Source: Microbotryomycetes sp. JL201
Taxonomy: Eukaryota; Basidiomycota; Microbotryomycetes
Reading direction: 5' to 3'
Assembly (NCBI GenBank): GCA_033819885.1
Contig: JAQYUZ010000010.1
Coordinates: forward strand, 417,959 to 481,958
Length of the DNA stretch: 64,000 bases
Below are positions 6,942 through 17,466 of the stretch, piece after piece. The translations under genes and the position numbers were made by a program. Each line of letters begins with the position of its first letter. Position 1 is the stretch's first letter. The notes under the pieces were generated by a model. It was not told the origin of the DNA and did no database searches. It was given only the letters and a program-made list of their open reading frames with translations.

Positions 6942-8825
6942 ATGAATACGTCAACCGTGTACAACGTAAATCCGACCTCACTGTGCTCAACGTGCACCTC
7001 TGTCACGCATGCCTGGCTGTCGCTGCTGCCGCTCGACATTGTCGTCATCGCTGCAGCGTCGTGCACCGCACTGTGGCTCTTTCACACCAGTAGACCTCGG
7101 TCTGACAAGCTTCAATATCCTGGAACCGGCCACGTCTTTCGAGCAAAAACGGTCCACGCTCGGTACTTGCCCGTCGCGAGCCGCCACCAATTCAGTTATC
7201 CAGTCTTGTTCTTTGGACTCGACTTGGACAGTCTGGAACGGCATGAACTTGATATCGACTCTCGCGTGTTTTGCTACAATGCAAGCGCGTCTGGGTCAAA
7301 GTGGCAAGTCTGTTCGATCGAACCGGACGTCTACTTTGATCCGCCTGTGACGGATGAACAACATCAAGGGATCAAGTACAAGCTGAGAAAACACCTCGTC
7401 CAGAATCTTGGGCCAGAGGAAGACGTGGACAAGTGCACTGAATCGGTTTATACGGTGACGATGCCAAAATACCTCGGCTTCCAAGACATTAACCCTTTGA
7501 CGGTGCACTTTTGCTATTCAAAGGACCGGCATACGCTCACAAATAAAATGGAAATTGTTGCGCTCGAGGTGTCCAACACGTTCGGCGAGAAACACTTGTA
7601 CACGCTGAGAGTGGGCAAAGACGAAGACGAGCGCATTGGTCAAGGGTAGGTCTCAGATCTGCAGCTTTCATGGCTGTATGCTAACCCGCCGGAGGCTAGG
7701 TACGACCATAGCTGGACATTCCCTCGCGCATTCCACGTCTCGCCTTTTAATGATCGGTCCGGATTCTACCAGGTGTCTGTTGTTGACCCACTCAAGCATG
7801 TACACGATAGATCCTCGGACACTCCTCGCTTAGACGTCAAGATCCTCACGCTCACGTCTGACCGACAGAAAAAGCTGTTTGCGTCGCTTGTTGGCGACGG
7901 CATCCCTTTGACAAAGGCGGCTTTGCTCGGCTCGATCGCAAGGTGGCCGACATCTTTGTTGTTGACTACCCCGAGGATCTTGTACCAAGCCGCCATTTTG
8001 CACTATCGCAAGTGGCTTGACGTTTTTCCGAGACCAGAACCGTTTGCGGCAGTGCTCAGCGCCAAACTGGACGATATCAATCCAGTCGAGGCGCTTGATC
8101 ATGCTCAAGAAGGCGGAGTGCAGTGGCAGGACGAAGGTGCTTTCACGACATTTGCCCGCAAGCGAACGGTGGCTTTCCTGGAGCGCAGAGTCGACGAGAT
8201 GGCACAATTGCTCGAACGACGTGTCAGTGTCTTACTCAAACCTGCCAACATCAACATAGACCCCATCACAATTGCTTCGTCTTTAGGCGAGGGTAAAGTT
8301 GAGAAGCTCGAAATGGCCTACTTGACGCCATTAATGTTTGACGACTTGTTCCTGTGTCCGACACCACAGCTTGCGCTTGAGCTCGGCAGCCAGTCTGAGC
8401 GCAGGTGGTTCGTCAACGATTCGACGTTATTCTTGGACGTTTTCAGCTGTGAACCGACAGTGCCAAAGCCGTCGAACGTTGGCAAGATGCCTCAGCTTCG
8501 TGCAGATATCGTCAAATGGGGCTTGTCGTTCTACACGGGTGATCTCTCATCGTTACCTCGTGATCTTGTCGACGCATCCGTACAACCTATAGTTCATCCG
8601 TTCGACAGTGACCCTGAATCGACTGGCTCTCGTGCCTATACTTTGGCCCGGAGACAATTCAGAACGGCCAAAGTTGGGTACTGGCTGTTTGTGCTATTCA
8701 GGGCGAGGTTTGTCAGAGGAACTGAACCCTGGTTGGAGTGGTGTCGAGTCGTCGAACAGAGGCGAGGCAGAGGGAGGGCTGTTGAGAAGGGCCGATTTGG
8801 AAGTGTTAGACGGAAGGACGGTTGA
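6942..8825 (+). CDS. DUF1365 family protein
   Basis: Two exons, 6942..7645 and 7700..8825, encode about 609 residues. A hydrophobic N-terminal segment (about residues 24-47) suggests membrane anchoring. The DUF1365 core starts with HVFRAKTVHARYLPVASR and includes FHVSPFNDRSGFYQV, and the end RRQFRTAKVGYWLF is also typical. The family is found in bacteria and fungi; in bacteria it often sits beside cyclopropane fatty acid synthase genes. Its biochemical role is not established, and no lipid gene is adjacent here. The fungal protein is longer than the bacterial ones because of insertions in the middle. Confidence 0.85.
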
Positions 8826-9066: not shown

Positions 9067-10580
9067 ATGACGCGCAGTCAGCCTCACCCATCCGCCTCGC
9101 AGCCATCTCCAACTCTTGAATCAGCACTGCAAGCCACTTCCAGCGCCGAACATGCTCCTGTTGCGCTCTTGCCGCCTATCCAAGACGCCCAATTCACGTT
9201 CAAAATCGTCGTCATTGGCGATACGAGCACTGGCAAGACGAGCTTGCGCACCAGGTACACACATAGCACATTCAGCTCATCTTACCGTGCCACGATCGGC
9301 TGCGACTTTGTGTCGAGAACGATATTTGTCGACGGACAAAAGGTCGTCATAAGTGTCTGGGACACTGCAGGTCAGTCGGTTCTGCTCGGCTTGCTCGTTC
9401 AAATGATTCACCAAAGCTCTTTACGAAACTGCAGGTCAAGAGCGCTTCAAGAGTCTGGCCGCGTCTTTCTACAGGGGCGCAGACGCTTGTTTGCTCGTCT
9501 ATTCTGATCAAACTTCCCTCGACAACCTCGAACACTGGTTCAACGAGTTCAAGACCAGATGTCCTGTTCAAGACGAAGAGCTGAACGATTTTGCATGGGT
9601 GGCAGTCGGCGCTAAAGCCGACATGTGGGAAGAGTACGGGTTTCGGACGTCAGGGGACAAAGTGGCGCGGATGCTCGAGCGCATCGTGCCAAGCCAACGA
9701 CAAAAGCAAGAGTTGCAGGCTAATGGAAGTCCTCAACCGACATCGCCAGAGCCACTGCATTGCCACAGAGGCGCAGACGCTCAACCTCACGCGACACCTT
9801 CGAAACTTCGAGTCAAATCCAGAGCGAGAGAATGCTGCGGTCATGACCAGAAGCTGAGAACCAAGAGGTCCACTATCTCAACTACGGGTTCGGTCTATCA
9901 CACGCCTTCGTCTACAATGCGTGGTGCGCTGCCGAACGGATCGACCGAGTCTCTGCTTAGCGAAGAGACAGTCATGCCGGGGACGCCCTCAACGTCTGCT
10001 TCAGTCTTGTCAGAACGCGACGTGTTCCAATGGACAGACAATGAGGAGCACTATGCCGCCGAGCAACTAAAAGAGAGCGCTCGTGGCGTGGACGTATTCA
10101 TGGCGACTTCGCCACCTCACACCCCAAGATCGCTGTTGCACAGAGACAGGACGAGGTACAAAGGCGGTCCATCGGTATTTCACGCACAAGACGAATCCAA
10201 CGAGGACGTCAAGCCAGAGGTTCATCCAGCGAGTAGGATTGCGCCAGGCGGGTCAGCGTTCACTGCTGCGGAGTCGGCGTACGATAGTTGTTTGTCCGCC
10301 TCGACAACAGCAGGTCATGATTTTGCGAGTGACGGTATCAAGCATTTTGTGACGTCCGCCAAGACCGGCGAAGGCGTCGAAGAAGTGTGAGTCTTTACTG
10401 GTCCAGGTGCCGACATAGGGCTGATCGACCCTACACAGCTTTGACTACCTCGCTCGGCGAATGGCGTGGAAGCGAGAAAAGGATGAAAGAGAACAGAAAG
10501 CGCAAGCTGATCGTGGTCCAACGATCAACCTCGCACCCAACAAGAAGCGCAACAAATGGGCGGAAGCGTGTTGTACATGA
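9067..10580 (+). CDS. Rab-family small GTPase with a large internal insertion
   Basis: Exons 9067..9370, 9435..10386 and 10439..10580 encode about 465 residues, more than twice the size of a Rab. G1 is GDTSTGKTS, the switch I region holds YRATIGCDF, and G3 is WDTAGQERFKS; the following FYRGADACLLVY resembles the Rab7/Ypt7 group. G4, normally NKxD, reads GAKADM at about residues 160-164. G5, TSAKTG, comes only at about 408, whereas Rabs normally have about 30 residues between them. The intervening segment is polar and Ser/Thr-rich, with no recognised domain. The C-terminus ends in CCT, a CCx-type geranylgeranylation site, so the protein should act on membranes. The frame is open throughout and splice phases agree, so this is not an assembly slip. 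Confidence 0.85.
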
Positions 10581-10712: not shown

Positions 10713-12098
10713 TCAATCCTTTGCTTGGTACACGTGCCCGCTAATGGCAATTTCTACGTCTGCGTCAACGCCTCGACCTTGTGCTTCCAATTCGCGCACG
10801 CGTGGAATCACCTCGCGGCCAAACTGCTCCAACTCCTCCTGAAAGTGCAGAAACGCCGTCAACAAGAACGAGATCCCTAATGATTTGAACAACAAGATGC
10901 GGTCGACAACTTGATCTCGTGTACCAATCAATTTCGCTCTAAAGCCATCGTTGAACTGAACGGCTTGGTCCGTCTCTTTCAACGTTTTTGCCCACATGCC
11001 TTTACCGTCTGCAGAAGATTTGCCAGCGTGCTTGACTTCGTTCAAGAAAGCGGCGACGGCTTTGTCGTCTGCGTTGCCAACGATTTCGTGCAACGTGCGC
11101 AAGGCTTCTTCTTCCGTGTCTCTGACGATGATGAACGCATTCAGGCCGAACCGGACTTGACCCTCTCGTCCTTCTTCGATCGCTCGCCTCTTGGTGTCTT
11201 CGACTATATCTAGAATATCCTATTGCACGCGGAGGCATCAGGGTCCATCGATGGCTTGCTCGTCTGATAGTCAACTCACTTGAACCGTGCTCTGACCGTT
11301 CAGCAGCAACAAGTCGCTGACTCGCGCAGCCATTGCCCGTGCGTCTGCACTGTTGCCTCCTTGAAAGATTTCTGGACCAGGTTTCTGAACCGGTTGAGGC
11401 CTCAACGGATACTCGTTGAACTGATAAAAGTTGCCATGAAACGTGAACGATTTTTTGGCCGTCCAAATCCCTCGCAACGCTTTAATGAATTCTTCAGAGC
11501 GACGGTACCGCTCTGAATGTTCGAGCCATGGTTCGCCGATCGAACGGAATTCAGTGGCGAACCAACCAGAGACGACGTTGACGGCAATCCGACCTTTGGA
11601 ATAATGATCTATTGAACTGAGTTGCTTTGCGGCCAGAACTGGTTTGCAAGGTCCAGGAAGGATTGCAGCGATAATCTTGAGCTTTTGGGTGTGAGCGAGG
11701 ATGTGCTGCGATAGTGACACTGATTCGTGCTGGTACTCGGCTCCGTAGCCCGCCATGAAACGAATTTGAGTCAATCCATGCGAAAAACCATACTGTTCAG
11801 CTGTCTGGGCTAGTTTGACCTGCAGGAGCGGTAAAGATTTCACCGTCAAACTCGGATCTGCTGCTAGTCTCAGCTCATTGAGACTGACATTGTACTCGGG
11901 AGACCAGTCTGTGCGTTGAGGGATCTTGCTAATGACCAATCCCCCTGAAACGTTTGGCACCCAATAGCCAAACTGCAGCCCGTCTTGCGCCTGGTTACCG
12001 TTCGAAGCAAACAAATGGTCTGTGCCGTTGGTCCCATTTGTATCAGCGCTGTCCAGTCTAGGCGCTTTGCCATTCGTTCGCGCTACTCTTGGCGGCAT
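10713..12098 (-). CDS. FMNH2-dependent dimethylsulfone monooxygenase-like protein (SfnG type)
   Basis: Luciferase-like flavin monooxygenase. Exons on the minus strand are 12098..11280 and 11219..10713 (441 residues). The core starts with FGYWVPNVSGGLVISKIPQR, followed by QIRFMAGYGAEYQHESVS, GRIAVNVVSGWFATEF and EIFQGGNS. All are close to bacterial SfnG, which oxidises dimethylsulfone to methanesulfinate with reduced FMN supplied by a separate reductase. About 45 polar residues precede the bacterial-type start. No flavin reductase gene is visible in the window. The neighbouring SfnB-like gene supports a role in organosulfur use. The related SsuD (alkanesulfonate) activity is the main alternative. 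Confidence 0.88.
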
Positions 12099-13120
12099 GA
12101 TGTTGGTGTTTGTCTGAGAAGACAGCGAAAGTCTCCGAGTTGGCGCGTGAAAGCAAACTTTTTGCTTGAATCGATCTGGACGCGAAGAGGTTGTCTGCGC
12201 TTATCGCGTCACCGTGTCAGAGTCCCTGGTTTTCACAGTTATTGCACTTTAGAAAGCTAAAGCTCAGACTAAATGTCCTTGCGTGATCTAGCCCGGTCTT
12301 TGACGAGAGAGGATGGCGTGCGCGAGTTGACGCCATCGGGCGAAGGGTCGTTCTGTGCTTGCGAGGGCAAGTGGCGCAAGTGCTAGAGGGTCCCGATTCA
12401 AGTGCCGAGGTTCGCTAAAAGGCGCATCTGTCAGTGTGCTTGAATCTGGATCACGTGACTCGGAATTGTCGCATAGAACCGTGGCTCAAATTAGAGCTGC
12501 AATGCATTTTGATTTCTGAAGGAGACACCATACGACTTTGGCTTGGCTGTATACTGTCTAAAAGACGCCCGCGGTCCTGCTTGGTCCGCGCCTTGTTTCT
12601 TGTCCAGCCCATGCACCGCCTCTCATCCGTTTGAGCAGACGCTACTTGGGTTCAAAGAGCGTGCAGGCTCGATCCAGTGCTCCTTGACGGAACCTCGTAT
12701 CACGCCAAACCCTGATGATGCTTGGGCCAGAATAGACACCCATGCTGCAACGTACACGAAAGCGCGTCGCTCCCAGCAAGAGTGCGAATGTGTTCCGAAT
12801 GTTCTAGGCTCAAATATAAAGGGCAAGCGTCACTGCCGCTCTCGCGCGTACTCGGCAAGGCGAAGGCTTCGCTGTGCAACTAGCTGTAGTGCAATTCAGA
12901 CGATGGTGCGCCGCTCATTCCTTGAGCGTCGGTAGCAAGCACCCGCGCTATGCTCGCAATGATGTACGATATCCTTGCGACACATCGTCACGAGCTCGTC
13001 ACAGTATCGTTGCTTTGCTCAGCGTGATACGAGCACGCATGCCAGAGCGGTTTTCAGCAGACTACAAAGCAACTACCCGCATTGCTCACGCAATACATTG
13101 ATCGTAGTCTAATGTATTTG
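12099..13120. promoter_or_regulatory. Intergenic region upstream of the SfnG-like gene, with a TCACGTGA site
   Basis: No convincing gene in 1022 bases. A palindromic TCACGTGA lies at 12451..12458, about 350 bases upstream of the SfnG-like start codon. In ascomycete yeast this is the Cbf1 site used at sulfur-assimilation genes. The same octamer also occurs elsewhere in the window, so its role here is only a suggestion. Confidence 0.4.
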
Positions 13121-14490
13121 TCAGGACGCGTTTCCCATTTTGACAACGAGTCGTCCAAAAGAGTGATTGCCGCTGCGCATGCGATCCAGGGCGCCCTAAT
13201 GATTGCTTCAAGTGAGTGATTCTTCTGAGCAAAAAGATTGGCGTTGACTTACATTGACAGCTTCTAGGCCCCCTCCTACGATCTCGATTGGCGGGAGCAC
13301 AAGCTCTTTGCTCGCAATCAGATCTTCCAACAGGCGCATGAGTCCGTTTCCTACTGCAGCGTTCGTGTGAAACGTTTTGATCGGAACGTCGCACAACCTG
13401 ACATTGCGCGGCGATTGCCCCGGCAACCCGCTCAAACCGACGAGGAACACCTCGCGCTCGAGGTCCGACAATGTCTGCATCGCAAACTCGGCAGTCTGAC
13501 GTCCCACACAGTCGACGGCGTATCGGAGCTGCCCTTGTGTGATGTCGCGGACCTGCTGCACTGCCAGTTTGGGGTCGCTGCGGTCGACGATGTGCGAGAT
13601 GCCGAGAGCCCGGAGTCGAGCATCGTGCTTTGACTTGTCGGCCACGGCAATGACTCGCAAACCAGCAATATGGGCAAGCTGGGCAATCAAAAACCCTGTG
13701 ACGGTGGATCCTGTGCCATTTCATTAGTCGTGATCAGTACCGCGATCGTTTTTTACCAAGCTCACCGCCCCAGATCAACAGGTACTCTCCAAGGTGAACC
13801 TGAGGCGTCGAAATGGGCGAGTCTGTACCCGATAGCTTTATCCATTCTGGGCTTTCGCCTTCGGCGCCAATCGCCCATGTCCTTGGAGCAAACCCTCTGA
13901 TTGCGATCCCTAGAGCAGAACCGAGCACAAGAGCTGCAGCGACTGCGCCGACACCCAGAGCTGCACACTGCTCGACAGACACGTCGTCCGGCACCGTACC
14001 GAGACAATGTTCGCTTGCGACTGCGTACTGCTGAAAAGCCGACGTGCGATAATCTCGATAAGCCGTGGACGGACCAAACACTCGATCACCGGGTTGCCAT
14101 CGTTGAACGCGCGAACCGACCTTGACAATCGTGCCAGCATAGTCTCTGCCGCAGAGTGCTGGCAGGGTCGGAAGCCCAAATCCAAAGTCTGCGCTCTTCC
14201 AGTCACTATACGTCATTGACGCATCTACACCGGTCAAAGCACGACTCTGCCTGCTCGTGATCTCTGGTCACTCACACTGGATTCAAGCCGATCGCTTCTA
14301 TCCGAATCAACACTTCGTCGGGCGAATTGAGCGACGGCAGCGGGATTTCGGTCAATTCGTACCGCGACTTTGGTGCATGAAGCAGCAGAGCTTCTTGCTT
14401 CGGTGGGTTCCTGAACCTGAGTGTGTACGGCATTGCTGGTGAGCTGGTCGTCGAGTTGACCTTGAATTTCTCAAGCGCGGCACCGGTCAT
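13121..14490 (-). CDS. Medium-chain dehydrogenase/reductase, quinone-oxidoreductase-like
   Basis: Minus-strand exons 14490..14276, 14205..13766, 13710..13253 and 13195..13121 encode 395 residues. The N-terminal GroES-like fold shows IEAIGLNPVDWKSADFGFG, CGRDYAGTIVKVGS and WQPGDRVFG. The Rossmann region starts at LIWGGSTVTGFLIAQLAH (NAD(P)-binding glycine motif). The last exon gives ALDRMRSGNHSFGRLVVKMG, the usual MDR end. Structural zinc Cys clusters are not visible, so a zinc-free reductase of the toxD/CipB-like fungal group is likely. It lies inside the sulfur gene group and faces the SfnB-like gene. A link to sulfur metabolism is inferred from position only. Confidence 0.87.
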
Positions 14491-14994
14491 GATTCGTTTC
14501 TTTTGATGCAGACGAAAGGGTCAATGGGAGGATTTTCGAATTGCATCATTGAACCGGACATCCACGTCTGGTCCCCTCGAGGCATCCCCCTGAGGCTGCT
14601 CCCTATTGGGCTAGCTCCCAGCTCGCGCAAAATGTCGTGCTCAGCACGTCAGCACCCTCTCTCCCCTGCTGCTGGCCTGAAAGGGCAGGCCCCGTCCCAA
14701 ATAGCACCCTAACTAAACTTGTAGGCATTGATGCTGACATGACATTGGTCAAGTACAGGTCAACAACCGCTCATCATCGCAAATTCTGATTTTTTGTGGG
14801 CTCGGGCAAAAACCTCGTTCGAGCTCGTCATTTGCCTGGACGGACGAAATCGAATGGCGTTTTGGACTAAACAGAAGGATGCGGGGACAAGTCGCCCCGC
14901 AAATAAACCTCGTCAGAAGATTGCGAAATCAGGCTCAAGGTGCAACTGATTTTGACGACCTGCAGTCTTTTTTCTTTCTGCCGACAAGCAGACC
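14491..14994. promoter_or_regulatory. Divergent promoter of the MDR and SfnB-like genes
   Basis: These 504 bases separate two divergent start codons and contain no ORF of note, so the two oxidoreductase genes probably share control elements here. I could not identify a specific binding site. Confidence 0.5.
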
Positions 14995-16558
14995 ATGTCG
15001 CCTGCCATCGCCCAGCCCGCTCCCCCTCCATCATCATTCCAGTCGCTGGACTTGACCACTTCGTCCAAGTCTGCAGCGGCAGATGTAGACGGCAAAGTGC
15101 AATACCCTTCGTATGCCTCTACGTCCGTACCCCGGACATTCGACGAGTTTCTCGCCCGGGCATACGAAGTTGCCGAGTTGCTTGCTTTTGATGTTGCCGA
15201 ACGTGATCGAGACAACATTGTTCCTTACCGCCAAGTCCAGTTGTTGAAAGACAGCGGTCTCGTCACGGCTCTCGGTCCGGTGGAACACGGTGGTGGCGGA
15301 CTTTCATATGCTCAAGGCTTGAAGCTACAACGTGCAGTATCAACTGGAGACGGATCGATTGGTCAACTCCTCGCGTACCACTACTTGTGGTCTTACACGG
15401 CTTGGGTCGTCGGTACCAAAGAGCAGGCTGCACGTGAAGCAGAACGGTTCGTACACGTTTGACCAGGTCAATTTGCCTCGAACTGAATCGAAAGCTTTTG
15501 ACAGGTACACGAGAAACAAGTACTTTATCGGAGGCGCAGTCAATCCGCGGTAGGTACACGTTGTCTCGCTGCTTGCCCAGAGCTAACGATCTGCCTCTCA
15601 GCGACTCTGACTTGAACGTCACCGAGACTGCTGACGGCCAAAGTCTCGTCTTCAACGGTCGCAAAGCCTTCTCTACAGGATCAAAGATTTCCGACCTGAC
15701 GGTGCTCGAAGGCGTTTTCGCTGGTACCGAGACGCACGTGTTTGCATTGGCAGAGTCGAAGCAACCGGGTATCGTGTACGGTGACGACTGGAAAGACGTA
15801 CTTGGAATGCGAGGTACCCAGTCCGGCTCGATCACCATCACGAACGTCGTAGTGCCATGGTCTGGCGCTCTCGGTTTCGATCCTCGAACGAAAACGTTTC
15901 AACCTCTCGGTGCCTTTAATACGCTTCTCTTGCCGAGCATTCAAGTCACATTCAGCAACTTTTATTTGGGAATCGCTCAGGGCGCTTTGGCCAAGGCGGC
16001 TCGATATACCGTCAAGAACACACGAGCTTGGCCGTTCGCAGGCGACGTTAAATCGACCGGTCACGAAGAGTTCTACATCCAAGAGACATACGGCGAGTTG
16101 CAAGCCAAGTTGTGGGCTCTCGAGGCTCAACTTGATCGGGTCGGTCAAGAGATTGGCGACCTCGTTGATAGACCAGACAGGCAAGTTGGCGAGCAAGAGC
16201 GTGGTCTCGTTGCCGTCAGGATCGCAGCCACAAAAGTCACGGCGACAGAGATTGCTCTTGAGGTGACAAACAAGATCTACGAAGTGCTCGGAGCCAGAAG
16301 TATCGCATTCAAAGCTGGGTTTGATCATTTCTGGTGAGGTCCAATGGCGATCTGACCTAGTTTGGCGTTACTGATACAAGGATTTTTCGTAGGCGCAACG
16401 TGCGCACACACACTTTGCATGACCCCAAGCCTCACAAGTCTGCAGAAGTAGGTCGTTTCGTTTTGACCGGCGAGTTGCCCGAGGTAAGCTATGTGAGCTC
16501 GAACTACTGATGGTTGTGCTAATTGCGTTGTTATCGACAGCCAACTTGGTATACCTAG
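14995..16558 (+). CDS. SfnB/DszC-like acyl-CoA dehydrogenase-fold flavoprotein
   Basis: Exons 14995..15446, 15505..15549, 15602..16333, 16393..16483 and 16541..16558 encode 445 residues. The acyl-CoA dehydrogenase fold shows VEHGGGGLSYAQGLKLQRAV and IGQLLAYHYLW in the N-terminal helices, then RYTRNKYFIGGAVNPRDSDL, GRKAFSTGSKISD and GTQSGSITITNVVVPW in the beta domain. The C-terminal helices end with RNVRTHTLHDPKPHK. This matches the SfnB 'sulfur acquisition oxidoreductase' group, close to DszC, rather than mitochondrial beta-oxidation enzymes. No mitochondrial presequence is evident. The neighbouring SfnG-like gene suggests joint use in taking sulfur from organic sulfones; the exact substrate is unknown. 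Confidence 0.87.
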
Positions 16559-17466
16559 GCATTTGTCGTTGTCGTACCGAATGCTAGCAACGATGTAATC
16601 TCAGCACCCTTCTGCCCGACCTGCTTTTGAACGTTTTTGAAACTGTGGCGGATTCGCCAGAATGGGATCCACGTCTTCGAGCTGGTAATTGGAGCACAGT
16701 CAGAGAAGGGAATGAGTGACTAACGAAGCCATCTTGGGACGAACCTCAACCTCGGTCAGATTCTGCAATCTCAAACACACCCGAGATCGCCTCGTATTCG
16801 GTTTCGAGCAATGTGACTTATTGTGTCATGTCGTACGCAAACATTCTATGCCATCTCAGCACTAGACTCATCTCTATGGCACGGTAAGCGTCACTGTCCT
16901 CGCCCAAGTGCCGCTTGACCCTTGCGAGAAGCAATGTGATGATGTCGAAGAGCTCGATTCGAGGTCGTGTACAGAGAAAGATGCGCGGGATCTCTTCCAT
17001 GTCACATGTAGTGGTAGATCAGGATTCTGGCAACATGCTATGGTCGACTTGAACAGGATGCAAGTCCGCGGCGAGCACTTTGTGCCTCCTCTGTGAGCAT
17101 GGCGAAGATGGACGGCTGGATCTTCTTGAGCGGCGTACACAATGAGTCGATGTACCAAATCGCGATGCCAGCAAGAGAAGGTCACGTGACTTCTGAGGGA
17201 GAGGCAACAAAAGACCGTCAAACGAGCGTCATTTTCACGACCGTGGGGATTCAGGGTGTCATGTATGATGCGTGTAGGCTTGCTTTTGTCGCGAGCGAGC
17301 GAGACAAAAGACAAAAGGCCGTTCGATGCTGCGGAATCCAAGCCGGGCCGTGCGCTATCTGGTTTCCGTTCGTTCAGTCTGGCACGCCATGGCGACTTCA
17401 GGTGAGCGAGCAACACGACGATCGAGACGGCGACTGCTGACACGCGTGCGCGGTGCAGTGCTGGCA
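16559..17466. other. Intergenic, uncertain exon-like pieces
   Basis: On the minus strand a 60-codon open stretch (16818..17000) and a longer one (16874..17488) look slightly protein-like, but no consistent gene model or family emerged. A TCACGTGA octamer lies at 17182..17189. The last part should be the farnesyltransferase promoter. Confidence 0.3.

What the first reader, a model, noticed from the sequence alone, without database searches (positions are those of the whole stretch)
10713..16558. A fungal organosulfur cluster: SfnG-like, MDR and SfnB-like genes side by side
The SfnG-like monooxygenase and the SfnB/DszC-like flavoprotein are the two enzyme types that bacteria (Pseudomonas) use to obtain sulfur from dimethylsulfone and related compounds. 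Here they lie within 6 kb, separated only by an MDR dehydrogenase that shares a divergent promoter with the SfnB-like gene. All three carry typical short introns and so are native to this genome now. Clustering of such genes in a eukaryote suggests a horizontally acquired, co-regulated sulfur-scavenging pathway. Missing from the window is the flavin reductase that both flavin enzymes need.
Basis: partly seen in the sequence, partly recalled or inferred. Interest (0 to 1): 0.8.

Follow-up and report, generated by a model that had tools for sequence, protein, structure and literature searches.

The report
Conserved fungal sulfur-scavenging gene trio
A yeast-like fungus carries three neighbouring genes that probably strip sulfur out of small organic molecules; related fungi keep the genes together, and some genomes fuse two of them into one protein, which points to an untested third player in this chemistry.

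Summary
Gene A passes NCBI's SfnG equivalog cut-off (492 vs 383 bits). Gene C is DszC-type (group D) but fails the SfnB cut-off (208 vs 431); its nearest bacterial relatives are actinobacterial and it is nearer to MsuC than to SfnB. Gene B is an MDR reductase without the usual zinc ligands, closest to LovC. Linkage is conserved in Microbotryomycetes, and 14 of 359 listed homologues hold B and A in one frame, 12 with a proper linker. Of 80 bacterial sfnG loci only 2 have an MDR in the fetched flanks, so B-A looks like a fungal arrangement. A is of proteobacterial type, C of actinobacterial type, B fungal: the cluster was probably assembled in fungi, not acquired whole. The genome search found no second PF00296 gene, three flavin reductases and five TauD loci elsewhere, allowing a route sulfone, sulfinate, sulfonate, sulfite. 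Substrates, the role of B and co-regulation remain untested.

The parts
10713..12098 (-). Gene A, SfnG-like FMNH2-dependent monooxygenase (OIV83_002300), 418 aa; exons 12098-11889, 11819-11280, 11219-10713
   Evidence: Translation identical to P0001; TIGR04021 492 bits vs cut-off 383 (with the longer first model); solved SfnG 8t0u E 1.7e-131
13121..14490 (-). Gene B, MDR reductase lacking zinc ligands (OIV83_002301), 395 aa or 376 aa from ATG 14433; exons 14490-14276, 14205-13766, 13710-13253, 13195-13121
   Evidence: Gene model; PF08240 + PF00107; best structure LovC; zinc-ligand places N51 and R73 without Cys/His in 28 of 28 sequences
14995..16558 (+). Gene C, DszC/MsuC-type group D flavin monooxygenase (OIV83_002302), 445 aa; exons 14995-15446, 15505-15549, 15602-16333, 16393-16483, 16541-16558
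   Evidence: Gene model, identical to P0121; PF08028, PF02771; PDB 8cda, TdsC, DszC, MsuC
14491..14994 (.). Shared divergent B-C promoter, 504 nt; holds no TCACGTGA
   Evidence: Coordinates; motif scan
12451..12458 (.). TCACGTGA (Cbf1-type E-box) 353 nt upstream of the start of A
   Evidence: 803 sites in 17.15 Mb
9407..10390 (+). Left boundary: Ras/Rab-like GTPase exon, not part of the cluster
   Evidence: PF00071
17825..18622 (+). Right boundary: prenyltransferase-like exon, not part of the cluster
   Evidence: PF00432

Best explanation
A fungal organosulfur-scavenging cluster assembled within fungi. A uses reduced FMN and O2 to cut one C-S bond of a small sulfone, giving a sulfinate and an aldehyde. 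C, a group D flavin monooxygenase, adds oxygen to sulfur: most likely sulfinate to sulfonate as MsuC does, or sulfide/sulfoxide to sulfone upstream of A. B, an NAD(P)H reductase without zinc, acts on the carbonyl by-product or a co-product; it is the usual fungal partner of A, fused to it in some ascomycete-like genomes. Reduced flavin comes from one of three PF01613 reductases elsewhere. The sulfonate is then cut by a TauD/Jlp1-type dioxygenase, because the genome search shows no MsuD/SsuD. Shown here: gene structures, family membership, conserved linkage, fused frames, separate origins, gene content found in the genome. Inferred: substrates, step order, role of B, regulation.
For: A passes the SfnG equivalog cut-off and aligns over residues 35-400 with solved SfnG. 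Consecutive locus tags: A-B in JL201, JL221, Sporobolomyces carnicolor, Microbotryum saponariae and M. intermedium; B-C in JL201, NB124-2, S. carnicolor, S. pararoseus and S. phaffii; all three on contigs of one length in S. salmoneus, S. koalae and Meredithblackwellia. B-A in one frame in 14 of 359 listed proteins, 12 with a linker of 40-53 residues. Of 80 bacterial sfnG loci, 43 carry a DszC-type ORF of 100 bits or more in the flanks, so the A-C pairing has a bacterial parallel. One PF00296 gene, TauD at five loci. Pathway chemistry from passages of PMC8234197 and PMC13352529.
Against: No expression, growth or enzyme data. C is not in the listing for JL221, Microbotryum, Leucosporidium and Rhodotorula pacifica although A and/or B are, so C may not always be a partner (listings are the best 120). 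B resembles ene-reductases, for which dimethyl sulfone chemistry offers no obvious substrate. PMC13352529 (passages) reports that MsuC is slow on methanesulfinate and that its loss gave no significant growth defect. PMC13170222 (passages) reports for Candida albicans that, except for the dioxygenase gene JLP12, losing single candidate desulfonation genes, those it calls FMNH2-dependent monooxygenases included, gave no growth defect on the sulfonates tested.
Confidence: 0.55

Rival explanations
1. A bacterial sulfur operon was taken over whole by an ancestor of this fungus and later gained introns.
For: A and C each have bacterial relatives around one fungal clade; bacterial sfnG often neighbours a DszC-type gene.
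Against: A is proteobacterial in type, C actinobacterial, B fungal; MDR beside sfnG in 2 of 80 bacterial loci, both generic; fungal C does not group with any of the 30 (of 69) DszC-type ORFs from sfnG loci put in the tree.
Confidence: 0.05
2. B is the dedicated electron supplier: an MDR that passes NAD(P)H electrons to flavin for A, so that the fused form is a self-sufficient sulfone monooxygenase.
For: One-frame fusion and adjacency of B with A; no PF01613 or PF03358 flavin reductase in the window.
Against: MDR reductases of the LovC/quinone reductase type are not known to me as FMN reductases (recalled); the genome has three PF01613 flavin reductases.
Confidence: 0.1
3. The trio is a detoxification or secondary-metabolite module in which an SfnG-type oxygenase, an ene-reductase and a group D hydroxylase modify a larger molecule; sulfur supply is not its purpose.
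For: The best structural match of B is LovC, the trans-acting enoyl reductase of lovastatin synthesis; C is below the SfnB and DszC cut-offs.
Against: A is a clean SfnG equivalog match; DszC-type partners such as MsuC serve sulfur pathways in bacteria; the four flanking ORFs scanned show no synthase, transporter or regulator (one of the four matches no Pfam family).
Confidence: 0.2

Closest known systems
Pseudomonas sfnG / msuEDC dimethyl sulfone pathway (SfnG, MsuC, MsuD, MsuE)
   Same: A is an SfnG equivalog by score; C has the MsuC/DszC type of sequence; both would need reduced flavin from a separate enzyme
   Different: No MsuD/SsuD-type gene and no PF03358 reductase found in the genome search; a fungal MDR is linked to A; C belongs to another clade than MsuC
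Fungal PF00296 FMNH2-dependent monooxygenases implicated in sulfur assimilation (Linder 2018, PMC5857272; Candida work PMC11502921, PMC13170222; passages)
   Same: PF00296 family (PMC5857272, PMC11502921), proposed sulfone/sulfonate use, induction by sulfur starvation in Candida
   Different: The passages read describe separate genes, mostly in ascomycete yeasts; no cluster with an MDR and a DszC-type gene is mentioned in them
DszC of Rhodococcus and the SfnG-SfnB region of Gordonia (PMC9861168, passages)
   Same: Group D flavoprotein beside an SfnG-type enzyme
   Different: C scores 221 bits against a DszC cut-off of 850; no MDR is listed in the Gordonia region in the passages read
LovC-type MDR enoyl reductases
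   Same: Fold, best PDB match by sequence and by structure
   Different: 27-28% identity in the structural alignment; B is linked or fused to an oxygenase, not paired with a polyketide synthase

Membership tests
SfnG (dimethylsulfone monooxygenase) | Whole-protein score over the TIGR04021 equivalog cut-off | tested here: met
   491.9 vs 382.95 bits (first model with 23 extra residues)
SfnG (dimethylsulfone monooxygenase) | Converts dimethyl sulfone to methanesulfinate with reduced FMN | not testable with these tools
   needs enzyme assay
SfnB | Score over the TIGR04022 cut-off | tested here: not met
   207.8 vs 430.9 bits; an SfnB from a bacterial sfnG locus, L026, scores 610
DszC | Score over the NF043015 cut-off | tested here: not met
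   221.1 vs 850 bits
MsuC (methanesulfinate monooxygenase) | Same clade as MsuC of pseudomonads | tested here: not met
   MsuC-class rows form their own clade (99*); C joins fungal, actinobacterial and unnamed rows (100*)
Group D two-component flavin monooxygenases (DszC/MsuC type) | Nearly full-length alignment with solved DszC, TdsC and MsuC | tested here: met
   E 1e-60 to 1e-51, best with residues 41-445; RTHTLHDP matches RTHSLHDP of DszC
Zinc-dependent alcohol dehydrogenase (MDR) | Cys and His ligands of the catalytic zinc | tested here: not met
   At the two aligned ligand places (recalled from horse ADH) N51 is N in 28 of 28 and R73 is R, S or A; the third ligand was not examined
LovC-type ene-reductase | Reduces a C=C next to a carbonyl with NADPH | not testable with these tools
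   fold match only
Bacterial sulfone operon transferred as a unit | All genes from one bacterial lineage and found together there | tested here: not met

The most novel reading that the evidence does not exclude
Fungi evolved their own type of sulfone-cleaving system, in which an SfnG oxygenase works with, or is fused to, a zinc-free ene-reductase. The conserved partner would mean that the natural substrates are alkenyl or other larger sulfones (for instance from plant S-alkenyl compounds), whose cleavage releases an unsaturated aldehyde that B reduces at once, so that sulfur scavenging and aldehyde detoxification are coupled, in some fungi within one protein. No such enzyme appeared in the papers I searched.
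Probability: 0.15. Interest if true: 0.7.

Novelty: new variant of a known kind. Interest (0 to 1): 0.45.

Why it matters
The review by Linder (2018; passages read) says that fungal FMNH2-dependent monooxygenases have yet to be characterised genetically or biochemically; a 2026 Candida albicans study (passages read) found no growth defect in the single mutants of those it tested. A conserved, sometimes fused, partner gene gives a specific handle: test A with and without B. If B is needed, fungal desulfurisation has an element that the bacterial pathway lacks, relevant to soil sulfur cycling and to fungal use of plant and fuel organosulfur compounds.

Tried and rejected
Recent transfer of a bacterial operon: rejected on trees and neighbourhoods. 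'C is SfnB': rejected on cut-off and tree. In the script I labelled the outermost class SfnB_like, but one search shows that its representative L017 is under the SfnB cut-off (287 vs 431) while L026, of the class I had called otherDsz, passes (610). One representative each of those two classes and two of the MsuC class (L036, L049) were checked; L036 is a near match of solved MsuC (807 bits), L049 was not compared with it.

Fungus-to-fungus transfer of the cluster to Sistotremastrum (Agaricomycetes): A places it among Microbotryomycetes (SH-aLRT 91; 82/89 in the careful tree), but the AU test does not reject Microbotryomycetes as a clade without it (p 0.132), B puts it beside them (87/93) and C is unresolved. 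Left open.

Regulatory motif: TCACGTGA lies within 500 nt upstream of A, ATP sulfurylase and one of five TauD genes. That is 3 of 12 promoters looked at: A, B-C, ATP sulfurylase, PAPS reductase, five TauD, three PF01613. Start codons of the ATP sulfurylase and TauD genes were estimated from reading frames, about 260-400 and 310 nt from the site. Binomial P 0.002 against the genome rate, 0.046 if promoters are assumed three times denser. The motif is also common elsewhere (803 sites, control 191). Suggestive only. CYS3-type and Met31/32-type motifs were not found in the cluster's promoters; one AAACTGTGG lies at 16640, just 3' of C.

Full report
IDENTITY. The window is G000:C2:417959-481958 of a 17.15 Mb assembly. 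The listed proteins OIV83_002300, 002301 and 002302 of Microbotryomycetes sp. JL201 lie on a contig of the same length, 481,958 bases. A (after correction) and C are identical to my translations over their whole length; B is identical from its second Met. The host is therefore a basidiomycete of the Microbotryomycetes.

GENES. A runs on the minus strand from 12098 to 10713 with introns of 69 and 60 nt. The 69-nt intron is in frame and I first read it through; the GenBank protein without it equals the corrected translation. B runs on the minus strand from 14490 (or 14433) to 13121 with introns of 70, 55 and 57 nt. C runs on the plus strand from 14995 to 16558 with introns of 58, 52, 59 and 57 nt. 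B and C share a divergent promoter of 504 nt. On the left follows a Ras-like GTPase exon, on the right a prenyltransferase-like exon, so the cluster appears to be these three genes.

FAMILIES. A scores 491.9 bits on the SfnG equivalog model (cut-off 382.95), its only NCBIfam model over cut-off (that query still held the 23 extra residues). Five homologues tested, four from named fungi and one unnamed entry, score 503-577. Solved SfnG (8t0u) aligns over residues 35-400. C scores 207.8 on SfnB (cut-off 430.9) and 221.1 on DszC (cut-off 850), thus neither; it aligns over nearly its whole length with 8cda, TdsC, DszC and MsuC, and the stretch RTHTLHDP matches RTHSLHDP of DszC. B is a two-domain MDR protein (PF08240, PF00107) closest to LovC by sequence and in a predicted structure (mean pLDDT 89.3; Foldseek ranks 1-3 LovC, then yeast Zta1 quinone oxidoreductase). 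At two places where zinc alcohol dehydrogenases hold Cys and His (recalled), B relatives read N in 28 of 28 and R, S or A in 28 of 28; the third ligand was not examined. B is thus probably a reductase of enone or quinone type.

CONSERVED LINKAGE. The listings show the best 120 rows for each gene, of 5808 hits for A, 2128 for C and 161 for B; P0006 is in two lists, so 359 proteins in all. Locus tags show A and B consecutive in JL201, JL221, Sporobolomyces carnicolor, Microbotryum saponariae and M. intermedium, and B and C consecutive in JL201, NB124-2, S. carnicolor, S. pararoseus and S. phaffii. In S. salmoneus and S. koalae the tags of A and C are two apart and B is on a contig of the same length. 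In Meredithblackwellia all three, in M. lychnidis-dioicae A and B, and in Sistotremastrum niveocremeum A and C, are on contigs of one length, which I take as one contig. In Rhodotorula pacifica A and B are two tags apart. C was not listed for JL221, Microbotryum, Leucosporidium or R. pacifica: A-B seems the more stable core. Strands of these genes are not in the listings.

FUSIONS. Fourteen of the 359 listed proteins match both the B and the A profile, always in the order MDR then SfnG. In 12 the end of the MDR is followed by 40-53 residues, 33-53% of them G, S, T, P or N, before the WVPN start of the SfnG core. These 12 are from Phyllosticta capitalensis, Saccharata proteae (MDR end only) and ten entries without organism names (sources lgn, ena, jgi). 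Two (P0006, P0081) join abruptly and look like merged gene models. Those of the 12 placed in trees fall with Ascomycota: P0026, P0049, P0065 and P0113 for A, P0261, P0267 and P0271 for B. Ascomycete B proteins are sister to those of Microbotryomycetes plus Sistotremastrum (99/96 for the joint clade). Whether the junction is one exon cannot be seen from protein entries.

ORIGINS. In the A tree (91 rows; 35 of the 80 bacterial loci kept) the fungi, with ten unnamed entries, form one clade (100*) with a stem of 0.45, inside mostly proteobacterial SfnG; the inner bacterial forks are weaker (88-90). In the C trees the fungal rows, with some unnamed entries, form one clade (100*; 100/100) beside Actinobacteria; MsuC is the next branch and SfnB lies further out (labels). 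Close relatives of B are fungal. Around bacterial sfnG, 43 of 80 loci hold a DszC-type ORF of at least 100 bits (17 loci with MsuC class, 17 with SfnB class, 26 with another class; classes set by score and checked on four representatives); 44 of 80 at E 1e-5, one of them with a weak match only. An MDR is found in 2 of 80 (L045, L074), both generic. Flanks were up to 8 kb and clipped in 17 of the 80 loci. The A-C pairing has a bacterial parallel; the A-B pairing shows none in this sample.

REST OF THE PATHWAY. The genome search finds one PF00296 gene, which is A, one copy of C, PF01613 flavin reductases on C12, C13 and C89, no PF03358, TauD-type dioxygenases at five loci, ATP sulfurylase and PAPS reductase. 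Searches are six-frame and exon by exon, so a miss is not proof of absence. In pseudomonads SfnG makes methanesulfinate, MsuC makes methanesulfonate and MsuD releases sulfite, with MsuE supplying reduced FMN (PMC8234197, passages). In Acinetobacter group D enzymes also oxidise dimethyl sulfide to the sulfone, and one reductase powers all of them (PMC13352529, passages), so a reductase outside the cluster is no obstacle. With no MsuD found, a TauD/Jlp1-type dioxygenase is the natural last step; deletion of JLP1 lowers growth of Saccharomyces cerevisiae on sulfonates (PMC5857272, passages). Against easy expectations: loss of MsuC in Acinetobacter had no significant growth effect, and single losses of candidate desulfonation genes in Candida albicans, JLP12 excepted, had none on the sulfonates tested (PMC13170222, passages).

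REGULATION. One TCACGTGA lies 353 nt upstream of A; similar sites lie an estimated 260-400 nt upstream of ATP sulfurylase and about 310 nt upstream of one TauD gene. Cbf1-type sites mark part of the sulfur-responsive promoters in Candida parapsilosis (PMC11502921, passages). The statistics are weak, and B-C has no such site.

PRIOR WORK. Fungal FMNH2-dependent monooxygenases with a presumed sulfur role are in print (PMC5857272, PMC11502921, PMC13170222; passages only). I found no paper describing the A-B-C cluster or the MDR-SfnG fusion in searches (listings; some of these were broad and returned mostly unrelated papers). The library is open-access only, and the yeast genome paper of Linder 2012 was not read.

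VERDICT. A real, conserved fungal cluster, a variant of a known pathway type with an unexplained fungal partner.

Noticed in passing
G000:C55:3239-3778 and C55:22613-23599 (L098, L091): PAPS reductase and a TauD/Jlp1-type dioxygenase lie about 19 kb apart on one contig.
   Followed up: no
window 17182 and 17924: Two further TCACGTGA sites near the prenyltransferase-like gene, of three in the 64-kb window; the palindrome is about four times commoner in the genome (803) than its reversed control (191).
   Followed up: partly
P0004, P0127, P0260: Sistotremastrum (Agaricomycetes) proteins group with or beside Microbotryomycetes for A and B; possible transfer between fungi, not settled by the AU test.
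   Followed up: partly
P0140, P0144, P0146, P0165, P0186, P0198: Smut fungi and relatives (Ustilaginomycotina) carry C relatives; none of them is in the best-120 list for A, and for B only Sympodiomycopsis appears, with a weak generic MDR (P0312, 28%).
   Followed up: no
P0006, P0081: Public gene models that seem to merge the neighbouring MDR and SfnG genes into one protein.
   Followed up: partly
window 16640: AAACTGTGG, a Met31/32-type site and the only one in the window, lies 82 nt past the stop of C.
   Followed up: no
window 7650-8822: DUF1365 protein exon left of the GTPase gene.
   Followed up: no
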